Source: Haematobia irritans
Taxonomy: Eukaryota; Arthropoda; Insecta; Diptera; Muscidae
DNA: 64,000 bases
Direction: 5' to 3'
Assembly (NCBI RefSeq): GCF_050003625.1
Contig: NC_134397.1
Coordinates: 150,039,526 to 150,103,525 of the forward strand
Part shown: positions 890 through 55,612 of the stretch, piece after piece
Position numbering within the stretch: position 1 is the stretch's first letter
Layout: each line of letters starts with the position of its first letter
Made by a program: the position numbers and the translations under genes
The notes under the pieces: model-generated
The model's input: only the letters and a program-made list of their open reading frames with translations
Databases searched by the model: none
What the model was told of the DNA's origin: nothing

Positions 890-1528
890 TATATCTACAG
901 AAATAAAATTTTGACAAAATTTTCTACAGAAATAAAATTTTGACAAAATTTTCTATAGAAATAAAATTTTGACAAAATTTTCTATAGAAATAAAATTTTG
1001 ACAAAATTTTCTATAGAAATAAAATTTTGACAAAATTTTCTATAGAAATAAAATTTTGAAAAAAAATTTATAGAAATAAAATTTTGACAAAATTTGCTAT
1101 AGAAATAAACTGTTGCCAAAATTTTCTATAGAAATAAAATTTTGAGAAAATTTTCAATAGAAATAAACTTTTGCCAAAATTGTCTATAGAAATAAAATTT
1201 TGAAAAATTTTTCTATAGAAATATAATTTTGATACAATTTTCTATAGAATTAAAATTTTGATAAAATTTTCTATAGAAATAAAATTTCGATAAAAATTTC
1301 TGTAGAAATAAAATTTTGGCAAAATTTTCTATAGAAATAAAATTTTGAGAAAATTTTTTGTAGAAATAAACACTTTTGACAATATTTTCTAAAGAAATAA
1401 AATTTTGACAAAATTTTCTATCTAAATAAAATATTGACAAAACTTTCTATAGAAATAAAATGTTCACAACATTTTCGATATAAATAAAGTTTTGACAAAA
1501 TTTTCTATAGAAATAAAATGTTTGCAAA
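890..1528 (+). repeat. 29-bp minisatellite array (forward orientation)
   Basis: About 22 copies of a 29-bp unit, TTTTGACAAAATTTTC followed by TATAGAAATAAAA, with point changes and small indels. It starts next to a lead-in with TTGTAGATTTTGC that resembles the lead-in of the array at 12.5 kb. Each unit carries the palindrome TTTCTATAGAAA. Short open frames rich in Phe, Tyr, Lys, Ile and Asn here are repeat translation only. Confidence 0.95.
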
Positions 1529-8326: not shown

Positions 8327-9687
8327 TAGTCCCCATATAAACCGATTTCCCGATTTGGGGTCTTGGGCTTATAAAAACCGTAGTTTTTATCCAATTTGCC
8401 TGAAATTAAAACTCTAGAGGTACTTGAGGACAATAAAAAGGTGTGCCGAAAATGGTGCCCATCGGTCCAAGTTTTGGTATAGCCCCCATATAGACCTATC
8501 TCCCGATTTTGCTGCTTGGGCGTCTAGAAACTGCATTTTCCATCCGATTTGCCTGAAATTGGAAGTCTAGAGGTATTTTGGGACCTTAAAGAGGTGTGTA
8601 GAAAATGGTTCATATCGATCCATGGTTTGGTATAGCCCCCATATAGACCTATCTCCCGATTTTGCTGCTTGGGCGTCTAGAAACTGCATTTTCCATCCGA
8701 TTTGCCTGAAATTGGAAGTCTAGAGGTATTTTGGGACCTTAAAGAGGTGTGTAGAAAATGGTTCATATCGATCCATGGTTTGGTATAGCCCCCATATAGA
8801 CCGATCTTTTGCTGCTTGGGCGTCTAGAAACTGTATTTTCCATCCGATTTGCCTGAAATTGAAAATCTAGAGGTATTTTAGGACCATAAAGAGGTGTGTC
8901 GAAAATGGTCAGTATCGGTCCATGTTTAGGTATAGTCGCCATATAGACCGATCTCCCGATTTTTGTTCTTGGGCTTCTATAAACTGTATTTATTACCCGA
9001 TATGCCTGAAATTGGAAATCTAGAGGTATTTGTATGCCGAAATTGACCGATCTCTCGGTTTTACTTCTTGGGTATCTAGAGACTATATTTTCTAGCCGAT
9101 TTGCTTGAAATTGAAAATCTACAGGTATTTTAAGATCACAAATAGGTGTGTCGAAAATGGTCTGTATCGGTCCATGTTTTGGTATAACCCCTATGTGGAC
9201 TGATCTCCCGATTTTACTTCTTGGGCTTCTAGAATCCGTATTACTTCGGCTTCTAGAATCCGTAGTTTTTATCCAATTTGCCGGAAATTAGAAATATAGA
9301 CTTATCTTAGGACCATAAAGAGGTGTGTCGAAAATGGTCCGTATCGGCCCATGTTTTGGTATAACCCCTATATACATTGATCTCCCGATTTTACTTCTTG
9401 GGCTTCTAGAATTCGTAGTTTTCACCAAATTCGTCTGAAAGTGGAATTCTAGAGGTATTTGAGGAACATTAAGAGGTGGTGAGTATTGGTCCCTGTTTTG
9501 GTATAGCCCCCATATGGACCAGATTTAACTCCTAGGGCTTCTACAAACCGTAGTATTTATCCGATTTACACACAAATTTAAACATACTGGAATTTTAGAC
9601 CCTCAAAAATCTGTATCGCGTTTATTTTTACCGGTCCATTGGACAAGGCATCGATATAGATCGATTTAACTCCTTGAGAGTACACCC

Positions 9688-12535: not shown

Positions 12536-13671
12536 GATTCTATTGAAATTAAAATGTTGAGAAAATTTTCTATAGAAATAAAATTTTGAGAAATTTTTCT
12601 ATAGAAAAAAAAAACTTTGACAAAATTTTCTATAGAAATAAAATTTTGACAAAATTTTTCTATAGAAATAAAATTTTGACAAAATTTTCTATTGAAATAA
12701 AATATTCACAAAATTTTCTATAGAAATAAAACTTTGACAAAATTTTTCTATAGAAATAAAATTTTGACAACATTTTTGCTATAGAAATAAAATTTTGAGT
12801 AAATCTTCTATTGAAAAAAAAATTTGAGAAAATTTTCTATTGAAATAAAATTTTGAGAAAATTTTCTATTGAAATAAAATTTTGAGAAAATTTTCTATTG
12901 AAACAATATTTCGACAAAATTTTCTGTAGAAAAAAATATTGTCAAAATTTTCTATAAAAATAAAATGTTGAAAAAATTTTCTATAGAAATAAAATTTTGA
13001 CAACATTTTTGCTATAGAAATAATATTTTGAGAAAATTTTCTATTGAAATAAACTTTTGAGAAAATTTTCTATAGAAATAATATTTTGACAAAATTTTCT
13101 ATTGAAATAAAATTTTCTCAAAATGTTCTATAGAAATAAATTTTTGACAAAACTTTCTATAGAAATAAAATATTGACTAAGTTGTCTATAGAAATAAAAT
13201 TTTGACAAAATGTTATACTGAAATAAAATTTTGACAAAATTTTCTATAGAAATAAAATTCTAACAAAATTTTCTATAGAAATAAAATTTTGACAAAATTT
13301 TCCATGGAAATACAATTTTAACAAAATTTTGTATAGAAATAAAATTTTGACAAAATTTTCTATGGAAATAAAATTTTGACAAAATTTTCGAAAGAAATTA
13401 AATTTTGACAAAATTTTCTATAGAAATTAAATTTTGACAAAATTTTCTATAAAAATAAAATTTTGACAAAATTTTCTATAATAATAAAATTTTGAGAAAA
13501 ATTTCTATAGAAGTTAAATTTTGACAAAATTTTCTGAAGGAATAAAAAATTGACAAAATTTTCTATAGAAATAAAAGTTTTCAAAATTTTCTATAGAAAT
13601 AAAATTTTGACAAAATTTTCTATAGAAATAAAATATTGACAAAATTTTCTATAGAAATAAATTTTTTTTTT
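12536..13671 (+). repeat. 29-bp minisatellite array (forward)
   Basis: About 39 copies of the 29-bp unit in intron 4 of the minus-strand gene. The array ends at the hammerhead-bearing element that follows. Confidence 0.95.
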
Positions 13672-14124
13672 CCATTTGTTTTGTTTTGTTATTGTTGGTT
13701 TTGTTCTTTAAGCATTGTTGTTGTTTTTTTTTATTTCAGCTTAAAACCATACATTGACTAAACTACAATTGTAGCTTAACCAACAGAGGAAAAGAATGTT
13801 TGTCAAATTTATTTGGGCAAAGCCCTATAGACTGCAAGATGGTTGGATGGACGCACGTTTCGGAATTACCACATTCCTCATCAGCATCCTCTACTTGCAG
13901 CAAAACTATCAACCAATTATCAGAATAAATTCAGGCAGTTTATTAAACCCAACAAAAACCACACTTGAACCCTCCGAAAAAAGGTTTTACATTGATAGCC
14001 GGCTTATGCCGAAATAAATTCGAAACAAACATATCTCTTTTCCTATGCCACTGTCAAATCATCGATTTGAATTCACATGGCTGGGTTTATTTTGAGCGTG
14101 CCTCCTCTTCTTTTTCCAAATAGA
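13672..14124 (-). mobile_element. Array-embedded foldback-type element carrying a hammerhead motif (copy 1)
   Basis: The left arm contains TTATTTCAGCTTAAAACC, CATACATTGACTAAACTAC and CTTAACCAACAGAGG, the inverse of arms found in the other copies. Then comes the complement of a hammerhead ribozyme (13832-13900), followed by a tail through CCGGCTTATGCCGAAATAAA. The right inverted arm is absent from this copy. The 29-bp array resumes at about 14125. The frame at 13796-14017 is not a gene: it overlaps the ribozyme. Confidence 0.75.
13832..13900 (-). ncRNA. Hammerhead ribozyme, type I, short stem III (copy 1)
   Basis: Read on the minus strand, every conserved hammerhead element is present. Stem I outer strand CTGCAAG and inner strand GGATG lead into the core CTGATGA. 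Stem II is GGAAT/ATTCC with loop GTGGTA, then GAAA. Stem III has two pairs (A-U and C-G) closed by loop GTGC, then cleavage triplet GTC. The stem I return strands are CATCC and CTTGCAG. Predicted self-cleavage lies between 13850 and 13849. The sequence is identical to the copies at 20293 and 21444. Activity is inferred, not shown. Confidence 0.88.
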
Positions 14125-15818
14125 AAATTTTATTTCTATAGAAATAAAATTTTGACAAAACTTTCTATAGAAATAACATTTTTACTAAGTTGTCTATATG
14201 TTTCACAAAATGTTCTATAGAAATAAAGTTTTGATAAAACTTTCTATAGAAATAAAATTTTGACTAAGTTGTCTATAGAATTAAAATTTTGACAAAATTT
14301 TCCATAGATATAAAATTCTGACAAAATTTCCTTTAGAAATAAAATTTTGACAAAATGTTTCTATAGAAGTAAAAATTTTGACAAAATTTTCTTTAGAAAT
14401 AAAATTTTGACAAATTTTCTATAGAAATAAAATCTTGACAAATTTTCTATAGAAATAAAATTTTGACAAAATTTTCTATAGAAATAAAATTTTGCCAAAA
14501 TTTTCTATAAAAGTAAAATTTCGCCAAAATTTTCTATAGAAATAATATTTTGACAAAATTTTCTATCGAAATAAAAATTTAACAAAATTTTCTATACAAA
14601 TAACATTTTGTCAAACTTTTCTATGCAAATAAAATTTCGATAAAATTTTCTATAGAAATAAAATTTTCTATAGAAATAAAATTCTAACAAAATTTTCTAT
14701 AGAAATAAAATTTTGACAAAATTTTCCATGGAAATAAAATGTTGACAAAATTTTGTATAGAAATAAAATTTTGACAAAATTTTCTATGGAAATAAAATTT
14801 TGACAAAATTTTCGAAATAAATTCAATTTAAAAATAAAATTTTGACAAAATTTTCTATAGAAATAAAATTTTGACAAATTTTCTATAGAAATAAAATCTT
14901 GACAAATTTTCTATAGAAATAAAATTTTGACAAAATTTTCTGTAGAAATAAAATTTTGACAAAATTTTCTATAAAAGTAAAATTTCGCCAACATTTGCTA
15001 TAAAAAAAAAATTTTGACAAATTTTTCTATCGAAATAAAAATTTGACAAAATTTTCTATACAAATAACATTTTGTCAAACTTTTCTATGCAAATAAAATT
15101 TCGACAAAATTTTCTATAGAAATAAAATTTTCTATAGAAATAAAATTCTAACAAAATTTTCTATAGAAATAAAATTTTGACAAAATTTTCCATGGAAATA
15201 AAATGTTGACAAAATTTTGTATAGAAATAAAATTTTGACAAAATTTTCTATGGAAATAAAATTTTGACAAAATTTTCGAAAGAAATTAAATTTAGAAATA
15301 AAATTTTGACAAAATTTTTCTATAGAAATAAAAATTTTGACAAAATTTTCTATAGAAATAAAATTTTGACAAATTTTCTATAGAAATAAAATCTTGACAA
15401 ATTTTCTATAGAAATAAAATTTTGACAAAATTTTCTGTAGAAATAAAATTTTGACAAAATTTTCTATAAAAGTAAAATTTCGCCAAAATTTTCTATTGAA
15501 ATAAAATTTTGACAAAATTTTCTATCGAAATAAAAATTTGACAAAATTTTCTATACAAATAAGATTTTGTCAAACTTTTCTATGCAAATAAAATTTCGAC
15601 AAAATTTTCTATAGAAATAAAATTTTGACAAAATTTTCTACAGAAATAAAATTTTGACAAAATTTTCTATAGAAATAAAGTTTTAATAAAGTTTTCTATA
15701 GAAATAAAATTTTGAGAAAATTTGTCATAAAAACAAAAATTTGCAAAATTTTTCATTGAAATAAAATTTTGACAAAATTTTCTATAGAAATAAATTTATT
15801 TCTATAGAAATAAAAGTG
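14125..15818 (+). repeat. 29-bp minisatellite array with a higher-order period near 480 bp
   Basis: About 58 units. A marker variant (CTATACAAATAACATTTTG then TCAAACTTTTCTATGC) recurs at about 14590, 15057 and 15545, so blocks of roughly 16-17 units have been duplicated together. It ends at GAAATAAAAGTGGCAATTTCG. Confidence 0.95.
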
Positions 15819-17119: not shown

Positions 17120-17655
17120 AAGGGTGATACGGTCAAAATTTAGTCAATATAAACTTGACGTATTTCTTTCAATTTTGCATTTAAAAAACCTGAATACCCC
17201 TCATTTTGAAGGTGTGTGTGTGTAGAATGTTGCTCCTATTTTGATTTTGGAATTCACTCTTTAGTTGTCAAAATGCCGTCCAAGCAAGAAGAGCAGCGTA
17301 TCAAAATTTTGCTCGCGCATCGCGAAAATCCGAGCTACTCGCACGCAAAGCTGGCAAAATCGCTAAAAGTGTTTAAAGTGTTTGGGGAACGTTTGTCGAC
17401 AGCCAGGAAGTCTGGATCGGGGGGAAATCGAAAACCTGAAGCCGCTGAGACGACAAAGAGAGTTACCGGTAGTTTCAAGCGAAACCCTAACCTCTCTCTC
17501 CGAGATGCCGCAAATAAGCTGGGTGTATCGTCTACAACCGTGCATCAAGCCAAAAAACGAGCCGGACTATCGACTTACAAGAAGGTAGTGACTCCAAATC
17601 GCGATGATAAACAAAATACGACGGCCAAAGCGTCGACGACAAAATACGACGGCCA
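17120..17655 (+). pseudogene. 5' half of a DD37E Tc1/mariner element
   Basis: It begins at the inverted end AAGGGTGATACGGTCAAAAT after TA (17118-17119). The frame from ATG 17273 gives MPSKQEEQRIKILLAHREN and the second helix-turn-helix (SLRDAANKLGVSSTTVHQAKK). About nine residues of the first helix-turn-helix are deleted (LAKSLKV joins directly to FKVFGER). The catalytic half and the other end are missing. The sequence passes at about 17655 into the 153-bp tandem units of a Helentron-like element. At the junction AAAATACGACGGCCA is present twice, about 28 bp apart. This is the second copy of the element at 7034-8326, in opposite orientation. Confidence 0.85.
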
Positions 17656-18664
17656 TGTTTCGGTATAGCGCACATATAGCCCGATCTACTGATGCGATTT
17701 CTTGCAATCCTTGAAACGTCAAATTTTATCCAGTTTGCTCTAAATTGGAAATTTTTGGCCTACACATAAATGTTGCGAAAATTGAGTGTATCGGTCCATG
17801 TTATGATATTTCCGTCATATAAATCGATCTCTCAATTTCACCCCTTGAGCGTCTAGACATCCCAAATTTTTATACGTTTTACCTGAAACTCAAAATCTAG
17901 AGCTATGTGGGGCGCATTGATCCACATTTTGACATAACCTCATATAGACCGATCTCCCGATTTGACTTCTGGAGCTTCTATGCACCGCAATTTTTACCCG
18001 ATCTGCCGGAAATTCAAAATATAGAGTTATTTTAGGTTTATAGTCGGATATGGTGTGAATCGGTTCATGTTTTGGTATATATCCCATATAAACTGATCTC
18101 CCGTTTTGACTCCTTAACCTTTTAGACATCACAGTTTTTACCCGATTTTTCTGGAATTCGAAATATTCTGTTTAGCGGTATTTTAGGTCCATTAGATTAT
18201 ATTATCCCACCTCAGTAATGCTGGTGACATTTCTGAGTGTTTGAAAGCTTCTCTAAGTGGTATCACTGCAATGTCGAACGCCGTTCGGACTCGGATATAA
18301 AAAGGAGGTCCCTTGTCATGGAGCTTAACATGGAATCGGACAGCACTCAGTGATAAGAGAGAAGTTCACCATTGTGGTATCACAATGGACTGAATAGTCT
18401 AAGTTAGCCCGAAATATCGGGCTGCCACTATATTCAGCCTAATCTAACCTTTAGTTCCATTAATATGTGTGACCAATATGGCTTGTATTGGGCAATGTTT
18501 TGGTATATATGTTTGCTTGACAGGGTGTCTGTCATCAAATTCACCCGAAATTTTATATATTTTCAAATAACCCGACGAAGAGTTTTCAAAGGAAACAATT
18601 ATATTTGATTCATAGTTTGGGGGGGAAGATTCGGCCCGGCATTCTTAAGTCCGTATTTACTTAT
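17656..18664 (+). mobile_element. Helentron-like element (type 2), 5' truncated
   Basis: Several diverged 153-bp units of the type seen at 8327-9660 (CGATCTCCCGATTTGACTTC cores). They are followed by the 3' end with a degraded hairpin (GATTCGGCCCGGC) and TATTTACTTATT at 18664. The 5' half is missing and replaced by the DD37E fragment. A SINE is inserted at 18195-18449. Confidence 0.75.
18195..18449 (+). mobile_element. tRNA-derived SINE, 5' truncated, with target-site duplication
   Basis: Body from ATCCCACCTCAGTAATGCTGG to the tail near AATCTAACC, in plus orientation and lacking the tRNA-like head. It is flanked by TTTAGGTCCATTA (18182-18194) and TTTAGTTCCATTA (18450-18462), a 13-bp duplication with one mismatch. 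That is the mark of LINE-mediated insertion, here into the Helentron-like element. Confidence 0.85.
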
Positions 18665-19210: not shown

Positions 19211-20067
19211 TACTCTTTCGTACTTCTATGACTTTAGTCCAAGCTTATCTATCATTTTCATTCTAAACTTACAAACAAGTTTTCTACCACTACGGCGTAT
19301 AAACCAGGTCTTAACTTCAAATGTTCTTGCCCATTTAATTTATCTGCTAAATATGCTGTCAATCCGAAATGGCATATATAGCAAACATCTATACCAACAT
19401 CAAATATGCTTAACTTAGAAAAAAATGAAGAATATAACGTTTATTTTGTTATTAGACGACGTATGCATTACCAATGAAAATTGTATTTTCTTTACTGAGG
19501 CATGAAACATATCATACAACAAATTAAATGGCTGCTAAAACTCGAAACATCTTCCCTGTAGATTTGCGTTCATATTTACCATAAATTTTCGACGCATGAA
19601 TGTGAAAAAATATTTGCATTATTTCTCAATCTAATTTCCCACTTGTTGGAAAGCACTTCTCTTCTATGGTATTCAGAATTAAGTTTTTTTTTTTTTGGCA
19701 CCAAAACTTCACAGAAATAAAATAAGACATACAAAAAACAAAATCATAGCAATAATAAATTTCTTTTTTGGAACTCTTATAACAGTAGTAAGCTTTTAGA
19801 ATTTCTCTCCAAATTGTTACTAAATGAAATTAAATTAATATGTTGTATACATTAGGGAGACATGCAAAATTGTTGCTAATTTTGCGATCCGAAATTTAAG
19901 TTCCAAGTGTGCAAAAATCGAAAACCACTAAGGCTGGTAGACACATTCCAAATAAAGATTTTTAAGAATTGTAACAAAACACCAAAATGTTTTTTAAAGG
20001 CAATTCTAATAATTCTTAAAATTTCAACTTTACAAACGTTTCACTATAACAGTGTAGGCAAAAATTA
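19211..20067. other. Intron 3, unique sequence
   Basis: A/T-rich, no supported exon or repeat. The 72-codon plus frame at 19200-19418 has no recognised motif. Confidence 0.45.
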
Positions 20068-20189
20068 AATTTTGACAAAATTATCTGTATGAATAAAAAA
20101 TTGACAAAATTTTCTATAGAAATTAAATTTTGACAAATTTTTCTATAGAACCAAATTTTGATAAAATTTTCTATAGAAATAAAATATTG
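20068..20189 (+). repeat. 29-bp minisatellite array (short)
   Basis: About four units of the 29-bp repeat immediately left of hammerhead element copy 2. Confidence 0.9.
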
Positions 20190-20478
20190 TTGGTTTTATT
20201 CTTTAAACATTGTTGTTGTTTTTTTATTTCAGCTTAAAACCATACATTGACTAAATGCCTGAATTTATTCTGATAATTGGTTGATAGTTTTGCTGCAAGT
20301 AGAGGATGCTGATGAGGAATGTGGTAATTCCGAAACGTGCGTCCATCCAACCATCTTGCAGTCTATAGGGCTTTGCCCAAATAAATTTGACAAACATTAT
20401 TTTCCTCTGTTGGTTAAACTACACTTGTAGTTTAGTAAATATATGGTTTTAAGCTGAAATAAAAAAACAACAACAATA
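20190..20478 (+). mobile_element. Array-embedded foldback element with hammerhead (copy 2)
   Basis: It has inverted arms. The left arm (TTATTTCAGCTTAAAACCAT near 20222) is mirrored by the right arm (ATGGTTTTAAGCTGAAATAA near 20445). The hammerhead (20293-20361) and a GGGC-TTT-GCCC hairpin lie between them. It is embedded in forward 29-bp arrays. Its right portion together with the following array is repeated 1151 bp downstream as copy 3. Confidence 0.8.
20293..20361 (+). ncRNA. Hammerhead ribozyme, type I, short stem III (copy 2)
   Basis: Stem I CTGCAAG...GGATG pairs with CATCC...CTTGCAG (7 and 5 pairs around an internal loop that could make the usual contact with loop II). The core is CTGATGA. 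Stem II GGAAT/ATTCC, loop GTGGTA, has the required G-C closing pair. GAAA is followed by the two-pair stem III with loop GTGC and the GTC triplet. Predicted cleavage lies between 20343 and 20344. Short stem III is typical of hammerheads in Penelope-like retroelements and retrozymes (known); this copy's parent element is not identified. Confidence 0.9.
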
Positions 20479-21430
20479 AAATAAAATGTTCACAAAAAAT
20501 TCTATAGAAAAAAATTTTCTGTAGAAATAAAAAATTGACAAAATTTTCTATAGAAATAAAATTTTGAAAAAAACTTTCTCTAGAAATAAAATTTTGACAA
20601 AATTTTCTCTAGAAAAAAAATGTTGACAAAATTTTCTATAGAAATAACATTTTGACAAAATTTTCTATAGAAATAAAAATTTGACAAAATTTTCTATAGA
20701 AATAAAGTTTTGACAAAAATTTTCTTAGAAATAAAATTTTGACAACATTTTCTACAGAAATAAAATTTTGACAAAATTTTCTATAGAGTAAAATTTTTGT
20801 CAAAATTTTCTATAGAAATAACATTTTCTATAGAAATAATTTTCTATAGAAATAAAATTTTGACAAAACTTTCTACCGAAATAAAATTTTGGCCAAATTT
20901 TTTATAGAAATTAAATTTTGACAACATTTTCTATAGAAATTAAATTTTGAAAAATTTTTCTATAGAAATAAAATTTTGACAAAATTTTTCTATAGAAATA
21001 AAATTTTGACAAAATTTTCTATAGAAATAAAATTTTGACAAAATTTTCTATAGAAATAAAATTTAGACAAAATTTTCTATAAAAATAAAATTTTGACAAA
21101 ATTTTCAATAGAAATAAAATTTTGACAAAATTTTCTATAAAAATAAAATTTTGACAAAATTTTCTACTTAAATAAAATTTTGGAAAAATTTTTTATGGAA
21201 ATCAAATTTTGACAAAATTTTCCATGGAAATAAAATTTTAACAAATTTGTACAGAAATAACATTTCGACAAAATTTTCTATCGAAATAAAATATTGACAA
21301 ATATTTCTATAATAATAAAATTTTGACAAAATTTTCTACAGAAATAAAATTTTGAAAAAATTTTCTATAGAAATGACATTTTGACAAAATTTTCTATAGA
21401 AATAAAATTTTCTATTATAATAAAATTTTG
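20479..21430 (+). repeat. 29-bp minisatellite array (forward)
   Basis: About 33 units. Variants such as TTTTTATGGAAAT and TTTGTACAGAAATAAC recur in the same order in the following array, showing that array and ribozyme element were duplicated together. Confidence 0.95.
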
Positions 21431-21634
21431 GTTGATAGTTTTGCTGCAAGTAGAGGATGCTGATGAGGAATGTGGTAATTCCGAAACGTGCGTCCATCCA
21501 ACCATCTTGCAGTCTATAGGGCTTTGCCCAAATAAATTTGACAAACATTATTTTCCTCTGTTGGTTAAACTACACTTGTAGTTTAGTAAATATATGGTTT
21601 TAAGCTGAAATAAAAAAATAACAACAATAAAATA
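21431..21634 (+). mobile_element. Array-embedded element with hammerhead (copy 3), left arm missing
   Basis: It starts abruptly at GTTGATAGTTTTG, contains the hammerhead (21444-21512), and keeps the right arm with CCTCTGTTGGTTAAACTAC and TTTTAAGCTGAAATAA. It is nearly identical to copy 2 from the ribozyme to the arm end. Confidence 0.8.
21444..21512 (+). ncRNA. Hammerhead ribozyme, type I, short stem III (copy 3)
   Basis: The same 69 nt as copies 1 and 2, with all core residues and stems intact. Predicted cleavage lies between 21494 and 21495. It is in tandem with copy 2 on the same strand at exactly 1151 bp. Confidence 0.9.
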
Positions 21635-22870
21635 AAATGTTCACAAAAAATTCTATAGAAAAAAATTTTCTGTAGAAATAAAAAATTGACAAAATTTTCT
21701 ATAGAAATAAAATTTTGAAAAAATTTTCTCTAGAAATAAAATTTTGAAAAAATTTTCTATAGAAATAACATTTCGACAAAATTTTCTATGGAAATAAAAA
21801 TTTGACAAAATTTTCTATAGAAAATAATAAAGTTCTGACAAACATTTTCTTAGAAATAAAATTTTGACAACATTTTCTACAGAAATAAAATTTTGACAAA
21901 ATTTTCTATAGAAGTAAAATTTTTGTCAAAATTTTCTACATAAATAAAATTTTGGCCAAATTTTTTATGGAAATAAAATTTTGACAAAATTTTCCATGGA
22001 AATAAAATTTTAACAAAATTTGTACAGAAATAACATTTTGACAAAATTTTCTATAGAAATAAAATTTTGACAAATATTTCTATAATAATAAAATGTTAAC
22101 AAAATTTTCTACAGAAATAAAATTTTGAAAAAATTTTCTATAGAAATAACATTTTGACAAAATTTCCTATAGAAATAAAATTTTCTATAATAATAAAATT
22201 TTGACAAAATTTTCTATAGAAATAAAATGTTGACAAAATTTTCAATGGAAATTAAATTTTGACAACTATTTCTATAATAATAAAATTTTGACAAAATTTT
22301 CTATAGAAATAAAATGTTGGCAAAATTTTCTACAGAAATAAAATTTTGACAAAATTTTCTACAGAAATAAAATTGTGACAAGTTTTTCTATAGAAATAAA
22401 ATTTTGACAACATTTTCTATAGAAATAAAAATTTGACAAAATTTTCTATATATATTAAATTTTGACAAAATTTTCTATAGATATTAAATTTTGACAAAAT
22501 TTTCTATAAATATTAAATTTTGACAAAATTGTCTATACAAATAAAATTTTGACAAAATTGTCTATACAAATAAAATTTTGACAAAATTTTTTATTAAAAT
22601 AAAATTTTGACAAAATTTTTAACAGAAATAAAATTTTGACAAAATCTTCTACAGAAATAAAATTTTGACAAAATTTTGAAATAAAATTTTGACAAAATTT
22701 TCTATAGAAAAAAAATTTTGACAAAATTTTCTATAGAAATAAAATTTTGATAAAACTTTTCATGGAAATACAATTTTGACAAATATTTCCATGGAAATAA
22801 AATTTTGACAAATTTTTCTATAAAAATTAAATTTTTGACAAAATTTTCTGTAGGAATAAAATGTTGGGAA
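21635..22870 (+). repeat. 29-bp minisatellite array (forward)
   Basis: About 42 units. The left half is homologous to 20479-21430. It ends at AAAATGTTGGGAAAATTTCAC. Confidence 0.95.
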
Positions 22871-23700
22871 AATTTCACCCACACAAATACCCACCCTAGT
22901 GTACATTTTTTCATATTGCTATTACTGCAATGCCAACAACTGTAATGGCTCTTTCAATTTGCTTGTCTATCTTTCTGAATATGTAACAGGAAATAAAAGG
23001 ATATTGGATTGCCTTAAATACATATGCATTTATGTATGGCTACACATATGAGGAGAGTGCAAGCAAACGCATTATTTCATTCACTTTTGAATATGAAATC
23101 GCATTCGAATGTGTGTTTGGTACGTTTATTGACAGACAGTGTACACAAATAGTTCGGAAATATGAATATTTATGAAATTGGACAATCCATGTCATGTTTA
23201 AAGCGTAGAGTACAAGGTTAGCAGGACTTGTGTATCTGAGTTTTGAAAGTATATGGTATTATTGCCAATTGGAGCACTTTTTTGTAGACGAAATTTACAC
23301 CAAAATTTAAATCGTTAAATTTTTGGAAAAAAATACAAGTATATGCGGCCGTAAGTTCAGCCGAGACGAATTTTAAATATCAACCACCATTGATCAAATG
23401 TAATAGTGTCTTTAAAAACACGTACTGTACCGGGCCGAACCAGGCCCGCTTCCTATTGTTTTCTATCTGAAAGATTATTTGTTGAAAAATACCTATTTTT
23501 AAGAAACAGTTAAGGTTCACTTAGTCAATCATATCCTTCACAGAATATTTCGTAGGATAAGATAATAAAATACCCCTACTGAAAAAAATCAAAAGGATTT
23601 GAAGTTATTTGCGAAATTCATATATACAGATTTCTCTATGTTGTCTGTCACTAAATGTATATTTTAATTTTCTTAAAAAAGTGTGGCACAAAGGAGAATT
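22871..23700. other. Intron 3, mostly unique; small Helentron-like end
   Basis: A 3' hairpin end of a Helentron-like element in minus orientation is visible at about 23334-23390 (TATATGCGGCCGTAAGTTCAG). The rest shows nothing I can assign. Confidence 0.5.
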
Positions 23701-28448: not shown

Positions 28449-30356
28449 AACATGTATATACGGCCGTAAGTTCGGCCAGGCCGAACCTTATGTACCTTCC
28501 ACCATGGATTGTGTAGAAACTTCTATCAAAGACTGCCATCCTCAATTGAATTACTCGGGTTGTGGTATCTTAAAACTTCTTAACACGGTTTTCTAAATTG
28601 TGAGTTAGTCCATACGTGGTATATATTAGACAAAAAAGTTATGTATAGGTAAGTCTACAAATAAATACGAATCAATATGGACTTTTGCACGGTACGTAGA
28701 GAGCCAGAATTGAAATATGGGGGTCGCTTATATGGGGGCTATGTATAATTATGAACTTGATATGGAGCAATTTTTGTGTGATTGGGGATCGATTTATCTG
28801 AGGGCTATATATCACTATAGACCGATATGAACCTAGTTAGGTATGGTTGTTAACAGCCATATACTAGCACAATGTACCAAATTTCAGCTGACTCGGATGA
28901 AATTTGCTCCTCCAAGAGGCTCCAAAACCAAATCTCGAGATCGGTTTATATGGGGGCTATATATGATTATGGACTGATATGGACCACTTTTGGCATGGTT
29001 GTTAAATATCATGTACTAACATCACGTACCAAATTTCAACCGAATCGGATGAATTTTGCTCTTCCATGGGGCTCCGGAGGTCAAATCTGGGGAACGGTTT
29101 ATATGGGGGCTATATATAATTATGGACCGATGTGGACCAATTTTTGCATGGTTATTAGAGACCATATACTAACAGCATGTGCCAAATTTCAGCCGGATCG
29201 GATGAAATTTGCTTCTCTTAGAGGCTCCGCAAGCCAAGTCGGAGCCTCTTGCTTTGACGAAATTTTCTATAGAAATAAATTTTTGACAAAATTTTGTATA
29301 GAAATTATATTTTGACAAAATTTCCTAAAGACATAAAATGTTAACAAAATTTTCTGTAGAAATAAAATTTTGACAAAATTTTCCATAGAAATATAAAATT
29401 TTGACAACATTTTCTATGGCAATAAAATTTTTGGTAGAATATATTTCGCTCGAGACGTAATCGAGATTTTTCTGTGATTGGGAATCAGTTTAGTTGGGGG
29501 CTATATATAATATAGATCGATACGGACCACTTTTGTCATGGTTGTTACCGGCCATACAGTAGCGAAATATACCAAACTTCAACCTGGTCGGATGATTTTT
29601 GCTCCTCCAGGAGGCTCCGGAGGTCAAATCTGGTGATCGGTTTATATAAGGGTTATATATAATTATGGACCGATATGAACCAATTCTGGTATGGTTGTTA
29701 GAGACCATATACTAACACCACGTACCAAATTTCAACCGGATCGGATGAAATTTTGCTTCTCTTAGAGGTTCCGCAAGCCAAATCTGGGGATCGGTTTATA
29801 TATAATTAATAACCGTTGTGTATATAATTAATAACCGATGTGGATCAAATTTTTCCTGGTTTCTGGAGACTATATACCAAAACCATGTTCCAAATTTCAA
29901 CCGGATCAGATGAAATTTGCTTCTCTTAGAGGCTCCGCAAACCAAATCTGGGGATCGGTTTATATGAGGGCTATATATAATTGTGGACCGATGTGGACCA
30001 ATTTTTGCAGGGTTGTTAGAGACCATATACCAACATCATGTACCAAATTTCAGCGGAATCGGATGAAATATTCTTCTCTTTGAGGCTCCGCAAGCCAAAT
30101 CTGGGGGTCCGTTTATATGGAGGCTATACGTAAAAGTGAACCGATATGGCCAATTGCAATACCATCCAACCTACATCAATAGCAACTACTTGTGCCAAGT
30201 TTCAAGTCTATAGCTTGTTTCGTTCACACGGACGGACGGACATGCTTAGATCGACTCAAAATTTCACCACGACCCAGAATATATATACTTTATGGGGTCT
30301 TAGAGCAATATTTCGATGTGTTACAAACGAATGACAATGTTAATAATGAAGGGTAT
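28449..30356 (-). mobile_element. Helentron-like element containing a 29-bp array
   Basis: In minus orientation the element's 3' end is at left: AACATGTATATACGGCCGTAA with the TTCGGCCAGGCCGAA hairpin. Diverged 153-bp units follow to about 29240. A short 29-bp array (29255-29435) interrupts them, further units follow, and the GGACGGACGGAC run lies near 30229. The 5' end is at about 30356 (GGGTAT). The right flank is the long AT run. Confidence 0.85.
29255..29435 (+). repeat. 29-bp minisatellite inside a Helentron-like element
   Basis: About six forward units embedded within the 153-bp tandem region, joined at CTCTTGCTTTGACGAAATTT. Shows that array blocks can be inserted into other repeats. 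Confidence 0.9.
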
Positions 30357-30406: not shown

Positions 30407-31711
<1,305 letters not shown>

Positions 31712-42086: not shown

Positions 42087-42099
42087 CGAGTGGCAACCA

Positions 42100-45926: not shown

Positions 45927-46058
45927 AATTTTTTTTCATTCGTTTTGTTTTGTTATTGTTGGTTTTTGTTCTTTAATCATTGTTGTTGTTTTTTTTTATT
46001 TCAGCTTAAACCCATACATTGACTAAACTATAAGTGCAGCTTAACCAACAGAGGAAAA
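45927..46058 (+). mobile_element. Arm of the hammerhead element, without ribozyme (copy 5)
   Basis: Contains TTGTTATTGTTGGTTTTTG, TTATTTCAGCTTAAACCC and CTTAACCAACAGAGGAAAAG, then returns directly to the array. The ribozyme and right arm are missing. Confidence 0.8.
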
Positions 46059-46790
46059 GAAAAAAAAAATTGTCAAAATTTTATTTCTATAGAAGTTTTT
46101 GTCAAAATTTTATTTCTATAGAAAATTTTGTGCAAACTGTATTTCTATAGAAAATTTTGTCAAAATTATATTTCCTTAGAAAATTTTGTCAAAATTTTAT
46201 TTCCATAAAAAATTTTGTCAAAATTTTATTTCTATAGAAAATTTTGTCAAAATTTTATTTCTATAGAAAATTTTGTTAAAATTTTGTTTCTATAGAAAAT
46301 TTTGTAAAACTTTTATTTCTATAGAAATTTATCTCAAAATTTTATTTCTATACAAAATATTGTCACGAATTTACTTCTATAGAAAATTTCCCAAAATTTT
46401 ATTTCTGTATAAAATTATTTCAAAAGTTTATTCCTATAGAAAATTTTGTCAAAAATTTACTTCTAAAGATAATTTTGTCACAATTTTTTTCTATAGAAAA
46501 TTTTATCAGAATGTTATTTCTACACAAAATTTTATCAAAATTTTATTTCCATAGAAAATCTTGTCAAAATTTTATTTCTACAACAAAGTTGATCAAAACT
46601 TTTACTTGTATAGAGAATTTGATTAAAATTTTATTTCTATAGAAAATTTTGTCAAAATTTTATTTCTATAGAAAATTTTGTCAAAATTTTATTTCTATAG
46701 AAAATTTTGTTAAAATTTCATTTCTATAGAAAAATTTTTTTTAAAAATTTATTTCAATAGAACTTTTTGTTAAAATTTTATTTCTATAAA

Positions 46791-46922
46791 AATTTTTTTT
46801 CATTCGTTTTGTTTTGTTATTGTTGGTTTTTGTTCTTTAATCATTGTTGTTGTTTTTTTTTATTTCAGCTTAAACCCATACATTGACTAAACTATAAGTG
46901 CAGCTTAACCAACAGAGGAAAA
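46791..46922 (+). mobile_element. Arm of the hammerhead element, without ribozyme (copy 6)
   Basis: Same sequence as 45927-46058, carried by the 864-bp duplication. Confidence 0.8.
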
Positions 46923-49670
46923 GAAAAAAAAAATTGTCAAAATTTTATTTCTATAGAAGTTTTTGTCAAAATTTTATTTCTATAGAAAATTTTGTGCAAA
47001 CTGTATTTCTATAGAAAATTTTGTCAAAATTATATTTCCTTAGAAAATATTGTCACGAATTTACTTCTAAAGAAATTTTCCCAATATTTTATTTCTGTAT
47101 AAAATTATTTCAAAAGTTTATTTCTATAGAAAATTTTGTCAGAAATTTTATTTCTACAGAAAATTTCGTCAAAATTTTATTTCTATAGAATATTTTATCA
47201 AAATTTAGCTTGTATAGAAAATTTTGTCAAAATTTTAATTCTATAGAAAATGTTATTTCTATAGAAAATTTTGTCAAAAATTTTATTTCTATACACAATT
47301 TTGTCAAAAATTTATTTCCATAACAATTTTTGTAAAAATTTTATTTCTATAGGAAATTTTGTAAAAATTTTATTTCTATAGAGAATTTTGCCAAAATTTT
47401 ATTCCTATAGAAAATTTTGTCAAAATTTTATCTCTATAAAAATTTTCTCACAATTTTATTTCCATAGAAAACATTATCAAAATTTTATTTCTATAGAAAA
47501 TTTTATCAAAATTTAGCTTCTATAGGAAATTTGGCAAAATTTTATTTCTATAAAAAATTTTGTCAAAATGTTCTTTCTATAGAAAATTTTGTCAAAATTT
47601 TATTTTTATAGAAAACCTTGTCAAAAGTTTATTTCGTTAGAAAATATTACCAAAATTTCTATAGAAGCCAATTCTATAGAAATTTTTGTCAAAATTTCAT
47701 TTTTATAGAAAAATTTCTCAAAATTTTATTTCTATAGAATATTTGCAAGATTTTATTTTTATAGAAAATTTTGTCAAAATTTTATTTCTATAGAACATTT
47801 TGTTAAAAATTTATTTCTATAGAAATTTTTCTCAAAATTTTACTTCTATAGAAAATTTTGTTAAAAATTTATTTCTACAGAAAATTTTGTCAAAATTTTA
47901 TTTCTATAGAAAAATTTTGTCAACATTTTATTATACCCTGCGCCACACTGTGGAACAGGGTATAGAAAATTTTGTGCAAACTGTATTTCTATAGAAAATT
48001 TTGTCAAAATTATTTTTCCTTAGAAAATTTTGTCAAAGTTTTATCTCTATAAAAATTTTGTCACAATTTTATTTCTATAGAAAATTTTATCAAAATTTAG
48101 CTTCTATAGGAAATTTGGCAAATTTTTATTTCTATAAAAAATTTTATCAAAATTTTCTTTCTATAGAAAATATTGTCAAAACTTTATTTTTTTATAGAAA
48201 ACTTTGTCAAAAGTTTATTTCTATAGAACATTTTGTTAAAAATTTATTTCTATAAAAATTTTGTCAAATTTTTAACTCTATAGAATTTTTTGTTAAATTT
48301 TTATTTCTATAGAGTATTTTATCAAAATTTAGCTTATATAGAAAATTTTGTCAAAATTTTATTTCTATAGAAAATTTTGTTAAAATTTTGTCAAAATTTT
48401 ATTAAAATTTTATTTCTGTAGAAAATTTTGTCAAAAATTTTTTTCTATAGAAAATTTTGTCAATGTTTTATTTCTATAGAAAATTTTGTCAAAATTTTAT
48501 TTCTATAGAAAATTTTGTTAAAATTTTATTTCTTTAGAAAATTTTTACAAAAATTTTGTTAAATTTTGTTAAAATTTTATTTCTATAAAAAATTTTGTCA
48601 AAATTTTATTTCTATAGAAGTTTTTGCCAAAATTTAATTCTATGGAAAAAATTTTTAAAACTTTTACTTCTATAAAAAATTTTTGTCAAATTTTTATTTC
48701 TATAGAAAATTTTATTTCTATAGAAAATTTTGTCAAAATTTTATTCTATAGAAAATTTTGTTGAAATTTTATTTCTATAGAACATTTTGTCAAAATTTTA
48801 TTTCTATAGAACATTTTGTCAAAATTTTATTTCTATAGAAATATCTCTCACATTTTTATTTCTACAGAAAATTTTGTCAAAAATTTATTTCTATAAAAAG
48901 TTTGGTCACAAATTTACTTCTATAGAAAATTTCCCAAAATTTTATTTCTGTATAAAATTATTTCAAAAGTTTATTTCTATAGAATATTTTGTCAGAAATT
49001 TACTTCTAAAAAAAATTTTGCCAAAAATGTTCTGCTATGGAAAATATTGTCAAAGATTTACTTCTATAGAAAAGTTTATCAGAATGTTATTTCTACTGAA
49101 AATTTTAACAAAATGTTATTTCCATAGAAAATCTTGTCAAACTTTTATTTCTACAGAAATTTTATCATAACTTTTACTTCCATAGAAAATGTTATTCAAA
49201 TTTTACTTCTACAGAAAATTTCGTCAAAATTTTATTTCTATAGAATATTTTATCAAAATTAAGCTTGTATAGAAAATTTTGTCAAAATTTTATTTCTATA
49301 GAAAATTTTGTCAAAAGTTTTATTTCTATAGAAAATTTTGTCAAAAATTTTATTTCTATACACAATTTTGTCAAAATTTTATTTCTATAAAAATTTTGCC
49401 AACATTTTATTCCTTTAGAAAGTTTTGTCAAAATTTTTACTTCTATAAAAAAATTTTGTCAAAATTTTACTTCTGGAGAAAACTTTGCCAAAATTGTATT
49501 TCTATAGACATTGTTAGTCAAAATTTTATTGCTATAGAATTTTTTGTCAAAATTTTATTTCTATAGAAAATTTTGTATAAATTGTATTTCCATAGAAAAT
49601 TTGGCCAACATTGTAGTTTGATAGAAAATTTTGACAAGATTTTATTTCTTTAAAAAAATATTGTCAAAAA
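46923..49670 (-). repeat. 29-bp minisatellite array (reverse), continued
   Basis: About 94 units. At 47933-47963 it is interrupted by a solitary 31-nt hairpin, ATACCCTGCGCCACACTGTG and GAACAGGGTAT. This is identical to the 5' end of the Helentron-like element at 31712-32762. Confidence 0.95.
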
Positions 49671-52639: not shown

Positions 52640-52936
52640 TACCAAAAAACTACCAAACAAAAACAATATTTGGCAAACTTTTATTCCTAAATTTTGTCAA
52701 AATTTTACTTCTATAGGAAATTTAGTCAAAATTTTATTTCTATAGAAAGTTTTGTCAAAATTTTATTTCTATAGAAAGTTTTGTCAAAATTCTATAGAAA
52801 ATTTTGTCAAAATTTTATTTCTATAGAAAATTTTTTAAAAGTTTATTTCTATAGAAAATTTTGTCAACATTTTATTTCAGTAGAAAATTTTGTCAACATT
52901 TTATTTCTGTTGAAAATTTTGTCAAAACTTTATTTC
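52640..52936 (-). repeat. 29-bp minisatellite array (reverse)
   Basis: About ten units preceding hammerhead element copy 4. Confidence 0.93.
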
Positions 52937-53342
52937 GTTTTGTTTGTTATTGTTGGCTTCTCTTCAATCGTTATTGTTGTTTTTGATCTCAGCTTAAACC
53001 CATGCATTGACTAAACTACAAGTGTAGCTTAACCAACAGAGGAAAAGTATGCTTGTCAAATTTATTTGGGCAAAGCCCTATAGACTGCAAGATGGTTGGA
53101 TGTACAGCTGTTTCGGAATTACCACATTCCTCATCAGCATCCTCTACTTGCAGCAAAACTATCAACCAATTATCAGAATAAATTCGGGTAATTCACTCAA
53201 CCCAAAGTGAACTACACTTGAACCTCCCGAAGGCTTTGCCCAAATAAATTTGACAAGCATACTTTTCCTCTGTTGGTTAAGCTACACTTGTAGTTTAGTC
53301 AATGCATGGCTTTAAGCTGAGATCAAAAATAACAATAAAACT
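52937..53342 (-). mobile_element. Complete foldback element with hammerhead (copy 4)
   Basis: Both inverted arms are present. The left arm has TTGATCTCAGCTTAAACCC, CATGCATTGACTAAACTACA and CTTAACCAACAGAGGAAAAG. The right arm, its complement, has CTTTTCCTCTGTTGGTTAAG and GGCTTTAAGCTGAGATCAA (arms about 130 bp). Between them lie the ribozyme (53085-53153, minus) and about 70 bp of spacer. It is the only copy with both arms full, so it best defines the element. Confidence 0.85.
53085..53153 (-). ncRNA. Hammerhead ribozyme variant with GUA cleavage triplet (copy 4)
   Basis: Minus-strand reading keeps the stem I, CTGATGA, stem II and GAAA elements of the other copies. The stem III loop is AGCT instead of GTGC, and the triplet is GTA instead of GTC, still an allowed NUH triplet. 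Predicted cleavage lies between 53103 and 53102. All changes avoid the invariant core. Confidence 0.87.
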
Positions 53343-55612
53343 TTATTTCTATAAAAAATTTTGTCAAAATTTTATTTCTATAGAAAACTCTGTCAAAATG
53401 TTATTTTTATAGAAAATTTTGTCAAAGTTTTATTTCTATAGAAAATTTTTGTCAACATTTTATTTCTATAGAAAATTTTGTCAAAATTTTATTTCTAAAG
53501 AAAATTTTGTCAAAATTTTATTTCTATAGAAAATTTTGTCAAAATTTTATTTCTATAGAAAGTTTTGTCAAAATTTTATTTCTATCGAAAATTTTGTCAA
53601 AAGTTTATTTCTGTTGAAAATTTTGTCCAAATTTTATTTCTGTTGAAAATGTTGTCAAAATTTTATTTCCGTTGAAAATTTTGTCAAAATTTTATTTCTG
53701 TTGAAAATTTTGTCAAAATTTTATTTCTATGGGAAGTTTTGTAAACAATTTATTTTTATAGAAAATGTTGTCAAAAGTTTATTTCCAAATTTTATTTGTA
53801 TAGAAAGTTTGGTCAAAATTTTATTTTTATAGAAAATTTTGTCAACATTTTATTTCTATGAAAATTTTGTAAAAATTTTATTTCGGTAGAAAATTTTGTC
53901 AAAATCTAATTTCTATAGAAAAATTTATCCAAATTTTATTTCTATTGAAATCTTTGTCAAAACTTTATTTCTGTAGAATATTTGGTCAAAATTATATTTA
54001 TAAAGGAAATTTTGTCAAAATTTTATTTCCATAGATTGTTTTGTCAAAATTTTATTTCTGTAGAAAATTGTGTCAAAATTTTATTTCATTGGAAAATGTT
54101 GTCAAAATTTTATTTCTATAGAAAATTTTGTCAAAATGTTATTTGTATAGAAAATTTTGTCAAAATTTTATTTCTTTAGAAAATTTTGTCAAAATTTAAT
54201 TTCTATAGAAAATTTTGTCCAAATTTCATTTCTATTGAAATCTTTGTCAAAATGTTATTTCTAACGAAAATTTTGTCAAAATTGTATTTCTATAGAAAAT
54301 GTTGTCAAAAATGTATTTCTATAGAAAATTTTGTCAAAATTTTATTTCTATGGAAAGTTTTGTCAAAATTTTATTTGTATAGAAAGTTTGGTCAAAATTT
54401 TATTTTTATAGAAAATTTTGTCAACATTTTATTTCTATAGAAAATTTTGTAAAAATTTTATTTCTGTAGAAAATTTTGTCAAAATCTAATTTCTATAGAA
54501 AAATTTATCCAAATTTTATTTCTATTGAAATCTTTGTCAAAACTTTATTTCGGTAGAATATTTGGTCAAAATTATATTTATAAAGGAAATTTTGTCAAAA
54601 TTTTATTTCCATAGAATGTTTTGTCAAAATTTTATGTCTGTAGAAAATTGTGTCAAAATTTTATTTCATTGGAAAATTTTGTCAAAATTTTATTTCTATA
54701 GAAAATTTTGTCAAAATGTTATTTGTATAGAAAATTTTGTCAAAATTTTATTTCTTCAGAAAATTTTGTCCAAATTTTATTTCTGTTGAAAATTTTGTCC
54801 AAATTTTATTTCTGTTGAAAATTTTGTCAAAACTTTATTTCTATAGAAAATTTTTTAAAAATTTCATTTTTATAGAAAATTTTGTCAAAACTTTATTTCT
54901 ATTGAAAATTTTGTCAAAATTTTATTTCTTTAGAAAATTTTGTCAAATTTTATTTCTATAGAAAATTTTGCAAAATTTTATTTTTGTAGAAAATTTTGTC
55001 AACATTTTATTTCTGTTGAAAATTTTGCAAAATTTTATTTCTGTTGACAATTTTGTCAAAATGTTATTTCTATAGAAAATTTGTCAAAATTTTATTTCTA
55101 TAGAAAATTTTGCAAAATTTTATTTCTATAGAAAATGTTGTCAAAAGTTTATTTCTAAAGAAAATTTTTTCCAAATTTTATATCTGTTGAAAATTTCGTT
55201 AAAATTTTATTTCTATCGAAAATTTTGTCAAAATTTTATTTCTTTAGAAAATGTTGTCAAAATTTTATTTCTATGGAAAATTTTGTCCAAATTTTATTTC
55301 TGTTGAAAATTGTGTCAAAATTTTATTTCTGTTTAAAATTTTGTCAAAATTTTATTTCTATAGACAATTTTGTCAACATTTTGTTTCTATAGAAAATTTT
55401 GTCAAAATTTTATTTTTATAGAAAATTGTGTCCAAATTTTATTTCTGTTGAAAATTGTGTCAAAATTTTATTTCTAAAGAAAATTTTGTCAACATTTTAT
55501 TTCTATAGAAAATTTTGTCAAAATTTTATTTCTAAAGAAAATTTTGTCAAAATTTTATTTCTATATAAAATTTTGTCAAAATTTTATTTCTATAAAAAAT
55601 TTTGTCAAAATT
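53343..55612 (-). repeat. 29-bp minisatellite array (reverse) with a 580-bp duplication
   Basis: About 78 units. A block with GGTCAAAATTATATTTATA and AAATCTTTGTCAAAACTTTA occurs at about 53862-54200 and again 580 bp downstream, with few differences. The array ends at CAAAATTAGTTGGTGAGG. Confidence 0.95.

What the first reader, a model, noticed from the sequence alone, without database searches (positions are those of the whole stretch)
20293..20361. Hammerhead ribozymes embedded in the minisatellite arrays
Seen: a 69-nt sequence with all invariant hammerhead residues (CTGATGA, GAAA, an NUH triplet) and three complementary stems (7+5 bp stem I, 5-bp stem II, 2-bp stem III). It occurs four times, at 13832 (minus), 20293 (plus), 21444 (plus) and 53085 (minus). 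Known: type I hammerheads with very short stem III occur in Penelope-like retroelements, retrozymes and some animal satellites. Inferred: the element is a ribozyme-bearing mobile or satellite unit, possibly a derivative of a Penelope-like terminal repeat.
Basis: partly seen in the sequence, partly recalled or inferred. Interest (0 to 1): 0.93.

Follow-up and report, generated by a model that had tools for sequence, protein, structure and literature searches.

The report
Hammerhead-ribozyme retroelement in a fly genome
Four copies of a self-cutting RNA motif in this insect genome window belong to a very abundant, roughly 441-base mobile element with no protein gene, whose ends look like those made by Penelope-type retrotransposons, so it may show which machinery spreads such ribozyme elements in animals.

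Summary
A 69-nt type I hammerhead motif lies at all four stated places; three copies are identical, the fourth differs at five sites, all in loop III or at the cleavage base. Rfam's type I model scores it 16.1 bits, below its cut-off of 34.

The motif is not part of the 29-bp minisatellite. It sits in a separate element inserted into the arrays: no long ORF, about 441 bp when complete, preferred 3' ends, variable 5' ends, target duplications of about 9-13 bp. The host genome holds 18,313 core matches (at most 3 mismatches; reversed-pattern control 0). Copies form head-to-tail concatemers of 441-442 bp and head-to-head pairs; the listed places showed no tail-to-tail pair.

This fits the published definition of animal non-LTR retrozymes. 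Its ends carry published marks of Penelope insertions: an optional AC-rich tail of about 41 nt, inverted pairs with one long and one short end, AT-rich targets. That points to Penelope machinery, a candidate in the retrozyme literature but without a diagnostic motif there.

Against: no partner reverse transcriptase was found, a GIY-YIG search gave one hit, cleavage and circular RNA are untested, and single core mutations are as common as neutral ones among otherwise intact copies.

The parts
20293..20361 (+). type I hammerhead ribozyme motif, predicted cleavage 20343/20344 (GTC|CATCC)
21444..21512 (+). identical hammerhead motif, predicted cleavage 21494/21495
13832..13900 (-). identical hammerhead motif, predicted cleavage between 13850 and 13849
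53085..53153 (-). variant B hammerhead (loop III AGCT, cleavage base A), predicted cleavage between 53103 and 53102
13674..14117 (-). nearly complete single unit of the element (444 nt, 36% GC) with the long 3' end
20253..20477 (+). 5'-truncated unit ending at the short 3' site
20185..20255 (-). inverted arm of the same insertion; its outer end lies about 24 nt into the tail
21428..21630 (+). copy read as the product of a 1151-bp tandem duplication of element plus array
45931..46061 (-). 5'-truncated unit starting 3' of the hammerhead
46795..46925 (-). second such piece, 864 bp away with the same match values, read as a duplicate
52934..53231 (-). 5'-truncated unit with variant B hammerhead and long 3' end
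53232..53336 (+). inverted arm of the same insertion, 98% identical to the right arm, outer end at the short site
53337..53349 (.). target site duplication GAAATAAAGTTTT (minus-strand reading), left copy; the right copy follows the 3' end at about 52924-52936
   Evidence: read by eye
20062..22875 (.). 29-bp minisatellite array around two of the copies; similar arrays at 12538-15794, 44181-49669, 52689-52936 and 53337-55612

Best explanation
The motif is the type I hammerhead of a non-autonomous retroelement, about 441 bp when complete, of the animal non-LTR retrozyme kind. Shown by sequence: the unit occurs as single 5'-truncated insertions, head-to-tail concatemers and head-to-head pairs; most readable 3' ends fall at one of two sites about 41 nt apart in an AC-rich stretch; insertions sit in AT-rich 29-bp minisatellites with target duplications. 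Inferred: read-through transcripts of tandem copies are cut once per unit by the hammerhead, possibly as dimers through the self-complementary stem III, giving 441-nt RNAs that are probably circularised by a host ligase. A Penelope-type reverse transcriptase and endonuclease, supplied in trans now or in the past, nicks AT-rich DNA on either strand and starts copying inside the AC-rich tail. That yields truncated, tandem or head-to-head insertions. The 29-bp arrays are a favoured target, not the source.
For: Motif and chance. Copies: 9,245+9,068 = 18,313 core matches at <=3 mismatches, reversed-pattern control 0; 11,499 exact; variant A 7,861, variant B 3,610. In 264 kb, 18 matches that I group into 15 pieces: 5' ends at many points; 3' ends 9 at the long site, 3 at the short site, 1 inside the tail, 2 lost. 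Of 5 head-to-head insertions, 4 have both outer ends visible and each has one long and one short end. A head-to-tail junction predicted from two copies was found 2,069 times at <=3 mismatches, control 0; same-strand neighbouring junctions are 441 or 442 bp apart in 21 of 23 cases, and same-strand neighbours in the variant A list in 18 of 18. Neighbour orientation in listed places: divergent 9, 12, 7, 5; convergent 0, 0, 0, 0 (lists overlap in part). 10 of 10 insertions judged independent lie in arrays that cover 19.7% of 264 kb. Circular fold of one genomic unit -118.2 kcal/mol, z -5.1 against 100 shuffles. Published marks: tail at one of the inverted pLTRs, AT-rich simple targets (PMC3846280); AC-rich start sites, ATT targets, both strands cut and extended (PMC11167929); retrozyme definition (PMC7229834).
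Against: No reverse transcriptase or GIY-YIG gene was tied to the element: none by a recalled motif in 364 kb, and one PF01541 match in the genome, with an internal stop (only 25 candidates were scored, so this is weak). Rfam score below cut-off. Nearest-neighbour energy prefers a non-hammerhead fold for the lone motif and within the circular unit; of the two co-folded dimers only variant B's gave the double hammerhead. Single core changes are as common as neutral ones: G5->A 114, loop II G->A 105, position 7 T->C 60. One of the four long/short pairs (37k) rests on a T-rich stretch of about 15-18 nt, and another (20293) reaches only part of the tail. Two copies (69a, 69b) end neither at the long nor at the short site. 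441 bp lies at the upper edge of the published 150-450 bp range. Cleavage, circular RNA and expression were not testable.
Confidence: 0.73

Rival explanations
1. It is the terminal repeat (pLTR) of an autonomous Penelope-like element still present in the genome; the 441-bp units are internally deleted derivatives, and the hammerhead only trims tandem pLTR transcripts without any circular RNA.
For: Tail, inverted pairs and AT-rich targets match Penelope elements. [quoted passage not shown] The head-to-tail junction reads into a short open frame (MEKEEEARSK, by eye), as expected if a few codons of an ORF remain.
Against: No GIY-YIG or RT partner found (weak tests). Published PLE hammerheads are described as minimal forms lacking helix III or the tertiary contacts (PMC7761336, passages), whereas this one has a two-part stem I. 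Concatemers of 441-442 bp without an ORF are the retrozyme pattern.
Confidence: 0.17
2. Retrozyme of the same kind, but mobilised by a LINE-type retrotransposon.
For: 5' truncation, target duplications and inversions also occur in LINE-mediated insertions (established knowledge); LINE-like ORFs seem present in L001 beside the window and in L023 elsewhere on C1 (read by eye, not searched).
Against: No poly-A or simple terminal repeat; two alternative 3' ends about 41 nt apart inside AC-rich sequence, with one long and one short end per readable inverted insertion, are Penelope marks.
Confidence: 0.07
3. DNA transposon (foldback element or MITE) with long inverted repeats that carries a chance hammerhead-like sequence.
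For: The 53085 copy has about 105-bp inverted arms, 98% identical, and a target duplication.
Against: Inverted arms are absent or of different length in other copies, 5' ends vary more than 3' ends, and tandem 441-bp units exist. The motif is very unlikely by chance.
Confidence: 0.03

Closest known systems
Metazoan non-LTR retrozymes (Cervera and de la Pena 2020, PMC7229834; passages and one of three parts of the results section seen)
   Same: Type I hammerhead, non-coding tandem units of a few hundred bp, GC below 50%, target duplications over 4 bp, strongly self-paired RNA, thousands of copies
   Different: 441 bp, at the top of the reported range; in the 264 kb read here copies are single or paired, mostly 5'-truncated and inside minisatellites; Penelope-type ends and head-to-head concatemers, which the passages seen do not report for retrozymes
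Penelope-like elements and their pLTRs (PMC3846280, passages; PMC11167929, whole main-text section)
   Same: Optional tail, inverted copy at the 5' side with only one end bearing the tail, target duplications, AT-rich simple targets, AC-rich reverse-transcription start region downstream of a hammerhead, tandem arrangement
   Different: No RT/GIY-YIG ORF found; hammerhead with a two-part stem I and a 2-bp stem III, not the minimal form
Schistosoma Sm-alpha, cave cricket pDo500 and newt satellite hammerheads (named in PMC6155905, passages)
   Same: Hammerheads in repetitive animal DNA; the tiny stem III resembles Sm-alpha (recalled)
   Different: No sequence relation tested; here the unit is dispersed and inserted into an unrelated 29-bp minisatellite
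Aedes aegypti 'repeat-type' hammerhead (PMC3088659, passages, figure S8 legend)
   Same: Self-complementary stem III and loop that could pair between two molecules
   Different: Not compared directly; no sequence held
Dipteran type III hammerheads (PMC7936874, passages; Musca domestica example)
   Same: Hammerheads in fly genomes
   Different: Type III, open at stem III; the present motif is type I

Membership tests
Hammerhead ribozyme, type I | Invariant core CUGANGA, GAAA, NUH before the cleavage site, three stems, ends open at stem I | tested here: met
Hammerhead ribozyme, type I | Score above Rfam gathering cut-off | tested here: not met
   RF00163 16.1 bits of 34; none at gathering in the window. 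A curation threshold, not a chemical requirement
Hammerhead ribozyme, type I | Self-cleavage activity | not testable with these tools
   needs a transcript
Metazoan non-LTR retrozyme | Type I hammerhead in tandem repeats of 150-450 bp | tested here: met
   441-442 bp units elsewhere in the genome, from positions only; the window's own copies are single units
Metazoan non-LTR retrozyme | No protein-coding region; GC below 50% | tested here: met
   444-nt unit at 13674-14117, 36% GC; no ORF of 110 aa or more listed over it. Absence of LTR, primer-binding and polypurine motifs was not scanned for
Metazoan non-LTR retrozyme | Target duplications longer than 4 bp when present | tested here: met
   about 9-13 bp in four insertions, read by eye in a repetitive target
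Metazoan non-LTR retrozyme | Highly self-paired monomer RNA | tested here: met
   circular fold z -5.1 against 100 shuffles, one copy tested
Metazoan non-LTR retrozyme | Expressed as linear and circular RNA | not testable with these tools
   no RNA data available
Penelope-like element | ORF with telomerase-like RT and, in canonical forms, GIY-YIG endonuclease | tested here: inconclusive
   none linked; PF01541 one match in the genome, 25 candidates scored, recalled GIY-YIG motif 0 in 364 kb. No PLE protein was at hand as a query
Penelope-like element | Optional 30-40 bp tail, on one of the two inverted ends | tested here: met
   about 41 nt; 4 of the 4 head-to-head insertions with readable outer ends (5 pairs in all), one of them on 15-18 nt only
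Penelope-like element | Head-to-head inverted copies, AT-rich simple targets, target duplications | tested here: met
   divergent but no convergent neighbours in the listed places; target GAAATAAAATTTT or its complement in 9 of 10 junctions by eye
29-bp minisatellite | Hammerhead is part of the repeat unit | tested here: not met
   57 array intervals of 80 bp or more in 264 kb but 15 element pieces; the 447-nt element query gave no match to array units at E<=1e-3

The most novel reading that the evidence does not exclude
This fly element is a retrozyme whose insertions carry the fingerprint of Penelope reverse transcription. Hammerhead-cut circular RNA would be copied by a Penelope enzyme from the AC-rich tail, often on both nicked strands, giving head-to-tail and head-to-head concatemers. 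It would settle which machinery spreads animal retrozymes, with a minisatellite as favoured landing site.
Probability: 0.45. Interest if true: 0.74.

Novelty: new variant of a known kind. Interest (0 to 1): 0.62.

Why it matters
Animal retrozymes are non-coding circular-RNA elements whose helper is unknown: PMC7761336 (passages) says their repeats show no motif that would reveal the autonomous partner, and names Penelope-like elements and Terminons as likely candidates. Here a retrozyme-type unit with about 18,000 core matches carries the tail, one-long-one-short inverted ends and AT-rich targets described for Penelope insertions. That makes the helper question testable in an insect with abundant material. 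Paper searches: hammerhead ribozyme with Diptera and Musca domestica listed 3 papers, of which the one opened reports type III motifs; hammerhead with Muscidae listed 2 unrelated titles; retrozyme with Penelope and insect listed 6, none a dipteran retrozyme by title. These cover open-licence papers only, and most listed papers were not opened.

Tried and rejected
Rejected: the hammerhead as part of the 29-bp unit; a DNA foldback element (variable 5' ends); site-specific start of insertions at the ribozyme cleavage site. The 192k copy first looked like that, but a SINE-like insert with a 15-bp target duplication explains it.

Led nowhere: pattern scan of viral contigs, 0; Pfam scan of 7 window ORFs gave only transposase, helix-turn-helix and weak unrelated matches; a recalled GIY-YIG motif in 364 kb, 0; accession PF26215, tried from memory, is not in the library; DNA search of the genome with the 69-mer, 0, the tool skips very common words; five other 10-kb places on C1 and 50 kb downstream of the 264-kb region held no copy.

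Prediction that failed: neutral-position changes should exceed core changes. They do not (core G5->A 114, loop II G->A 105, position 7 T->C 60).

Dropped rows: one search tallied only the 64 one-mismatch places of the 100 listed and left out the 36 zero-mismatch places; its core comparison took 9 of the 11 junctions in the range of the listed cores (the other two have no listed core within 600 bases, by eye). Orientation tallies use the first 100 listed places of each search, neighbours within 1.5 kb or 1 kb, and partly overlap. In one search the five loop III and cleavage-base sites, where all five differences of the variant B copy lie, were left out of the 'scaffold' after seeing them.

Full report
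OBSERVATION. The 69-nt motif is exact at 13832-13900 (-), 20293-20361 (+) and 21444-21512 (+); the copy at 53085-53153 (-) differs at five sites, four in loop III and one at the cleavage base. A scan that demands the core, at least 5 bp of stem I, 4 bp of stem II and 2 bp of stem III finds only these four in the window, against 3 hits in 200 shuffled windows. Rfam's type I hammerhead model aligns to the right residues but scores 16.1 bits against a cut-off of 34; the alignment deletes three pairs of its 6-bp stem I. In both variants stem III and its loop are self-complementary (ACGTGCGT with two G-U pairs, ACAGCTGT perfectly). A co-fold of two variant B molecules predicts the double hammerhead, that of variant A does not, and lone molecules of both prefer another fold. 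Palindromic stem III sequences of several hammerheads, with Aedes as the example, are described in PMC3088659 (figure legend).

THE ELEMENT. Flanks show that the motif lies in an inserted element, not in the 29-bp unit. In 264 kb of contiguous host DNA (window plus L001-L020) there are 18 matches that I group into 15 pieces, 12 of them with all or part of the hammerhead; five other 10-kb places and a further 50 kb had none. The pieces start at many points, the usual sign of reverse transcription that stops early. Of the 15, 9 end at a long 3' site near AAAACGAATG, 3 at a short site about 41 nt earlier after AACAACAACAAT, 1 inside the tail, and 2 (69a, 69b) just after the hammerhead cleavage site. 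The 21444 copy, one of the two pieces without hammerhead in the window, and one of 227k/228k look like tandem duplicates. Some insertions carry an inverted piece at the 5' side. Of 5 head-to-head insertions, 4 have readable outer ends, and each has one long and one short end; in one (37k) the inverted piece is only a T-rich 15-18 nt, in another (20293) the long end reaches about 24 nt into the tail. Target duplications are about 9-13 bp (GAAATAAAGTTTT at 53085, GAAATAAAATTT in the 37k copy); they lie in repeats, but the 53085 one shares a unit-specific G on both sides.

TARGET. The 29-bp arrays cover 19.7% of the 264 kb, and all 10 insertions that I judge independent lie in them. By eye, 6 of 10 listed 3' junctions fall at the GAAATAAAATTTT part of the unit, 3 at its complement and 1 (146a) elsewhere. 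Ten of ten in arrays would by chance be of the order of 1e-7 (my estimate, which assumes independent insertions and equal detectability).

GENOME. The 28-nt core has 18,313 matches with at most 3 mismatches and 11,499 exact ones; reversed controls are 0. Variant A has 7,861 and variant B 3,610 exact copies of a 27-nt stretch. I predicted a head-to-tail junction by joining the long end of one copy to the 5' start of the window's longest copy; it occurs 2,069 times at <=3 mismatches. Of 11 junctions in the range where cores are listed, 4 have a core 199 bases before and another 242-243 after, 5 have a same-strand core 241-243 bases downstream only, and 2 have no listed core near (and by eye). 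Same-strand neighbouring junctions are 441 or 442 bp apart in 21 of 23 cases. One place, C1:18098415-18102638, holds five units in one direction followed head-to-head by six in the other. Convergent neighbours are absent from all four tallies, each drawn from the first 100 places listed.

CONSERVATION, BOTH WAYS. Between one copy of each variant (113k and 153k) flanks differ at 27 of 229 sites and the hammerhead at 5 of 69, all five in loop III or at the cleavage base; without those sites, a choice made after seeing them, 0 of 64 (P about 3e-4). The other comparisons with 113k, scaffold against flanks: 228k 1 of 64 and 25 of 239 (P 0.007), 227k 3 of 64 and 27 of 220 (P 0.04; duplicate of 228k), 37k 2 of 64 and 12 of 295 (P 0.51), 165a 1 of 64 and 14 of 263 (P 0.14), 192a 2 of 60 and 16 of 187 (P 0.10). 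So conservation is suggestive for the more distant copies only. The one abundant ribozyme variant that I counted changes loop III and the cleavage base, places a hammerhead tolerates. Against selection on individual copies: otherwise intact copies with core G5->A number 114, with a loop II G->A 105, with the tolerated position 7 T->C 60. Copies therefore seem to decay neutrally after insertion; any constraint acts on the source lineages.

MECHANISM. Shown: structure of unit, ends, targets, concatemers. Inferred: transcripts of concatemers are cut once per unit, the 441-nt RNA circularises, and a Penelope-type enzyme copies it from inside the AC-rich tail after nicking AT-rich DNA. The published Anolis Penelope enzyme cuts and extends both strands, prefers ATT-containing AT-rich DNA and starts inside an AC-rich stem-loop downstream of its hammerhead, the two start sites explaining the tail (PMC11167929). 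Rotifer Penelope elements carry the tail at one of the two inverted terminal repeats, and Penelope elements favour AT-rich simple sequence (PMC3846280, passages). The same Anolis study found hammerhead cleavage unnecessary in vitro, its hammerhead active only with protein, and no reads ending at the cleavage site, so an uncut multimeric template remains possible here too.

MEMBERSHIP. By the published definition (PMC7229834) the element meets the sequence criteria of a non-LTR retrozyme that I tested; expression as circular RNA is untested. It is not filed as a Penelope-like element: the defining reverse transcriptase was not found (weak tests). It works, in its insertion anatomy, like one.

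NOVELTY. Insect retrozymes are mentioned in general (PMC7229834) and type III hammerheads in flies are reported (PMC7936874). I met no account of a type I retrozyme in flies of this kind, nor of Penelope tails on a retrozyme, in the listings and the passages opened; the library is open-licence only and most listed papers were not opened. Checking the draft against the calls changed the piece count (14 to 15) and the wording on conservation and junctions; I lowered the main confidence by 0.01 for the weaker conservation evidence.

Noticed in passing
L003:8705-9030: A SINE-like insert of about 326 bp (tRNA-like end by eye) splits a hammerhead copy; its 15-bp target duplication CCATCCAACCATCTT begins at the ribozyme cleavage site.
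   Followed up: partly
L014:9321-9529: A head-to-head pair in which both arms stop about 6 nt after the hammerhead cleavage site and continue directly into minisatellite; unexplained.
   Followed up: no
window 125-548, 8327-9031, 28783-29237, 33902-35003, 58930-60050, 60594-61376: Tandem repeats of about 153 bp (51 codons) at several places, in which long reading frames stay open (VYMGAIYNYGPMWTNFCM... in some).
   Followed up: no
window 894-1529, 2972-4483, 12538-15794, 20062-22875, 39716-42087, 44181-49669, 53337-55612: The 29-bp minisatellite covers 19.7% of the 264-kb region and more than 10% of two of five other 10-kb places, so it is not confined to this locus.
   Followed up: partly
G000 C1:18098415-18102638: Eleven hammerhead units in one place, five in one direction and six in the other, at 441-bp spacing around a 228-bp centre (positions only).
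   Followed up: partly
G000 C1:41424244-41424477: The only GIY-YIG (PF01541) match reported in the genome, with one internal stop; a host gene exon or a decayed Penelope endonuclease could not be told apart.
   Followed up: no
window 7449-8222, 17210-17668, 57796-58242: Remnants that look like mariner/Tc1-type transposases (one weak Pfam Transposase_1 match, the others helix-turn-helix matches and by eye).
   Followed up: partly
window 30409-30582: A perfect run of 87 AT units.
   Followed up: no
junction of units, near window 14117 in the 13832 copy: Across a head-to-tail junction a short frame ATG GAA AAA GAA GAG GAG GCA CGC TCA AAA TAA opens (by eye), possibly the remnant start of a lost ORF.
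   Followed up: no
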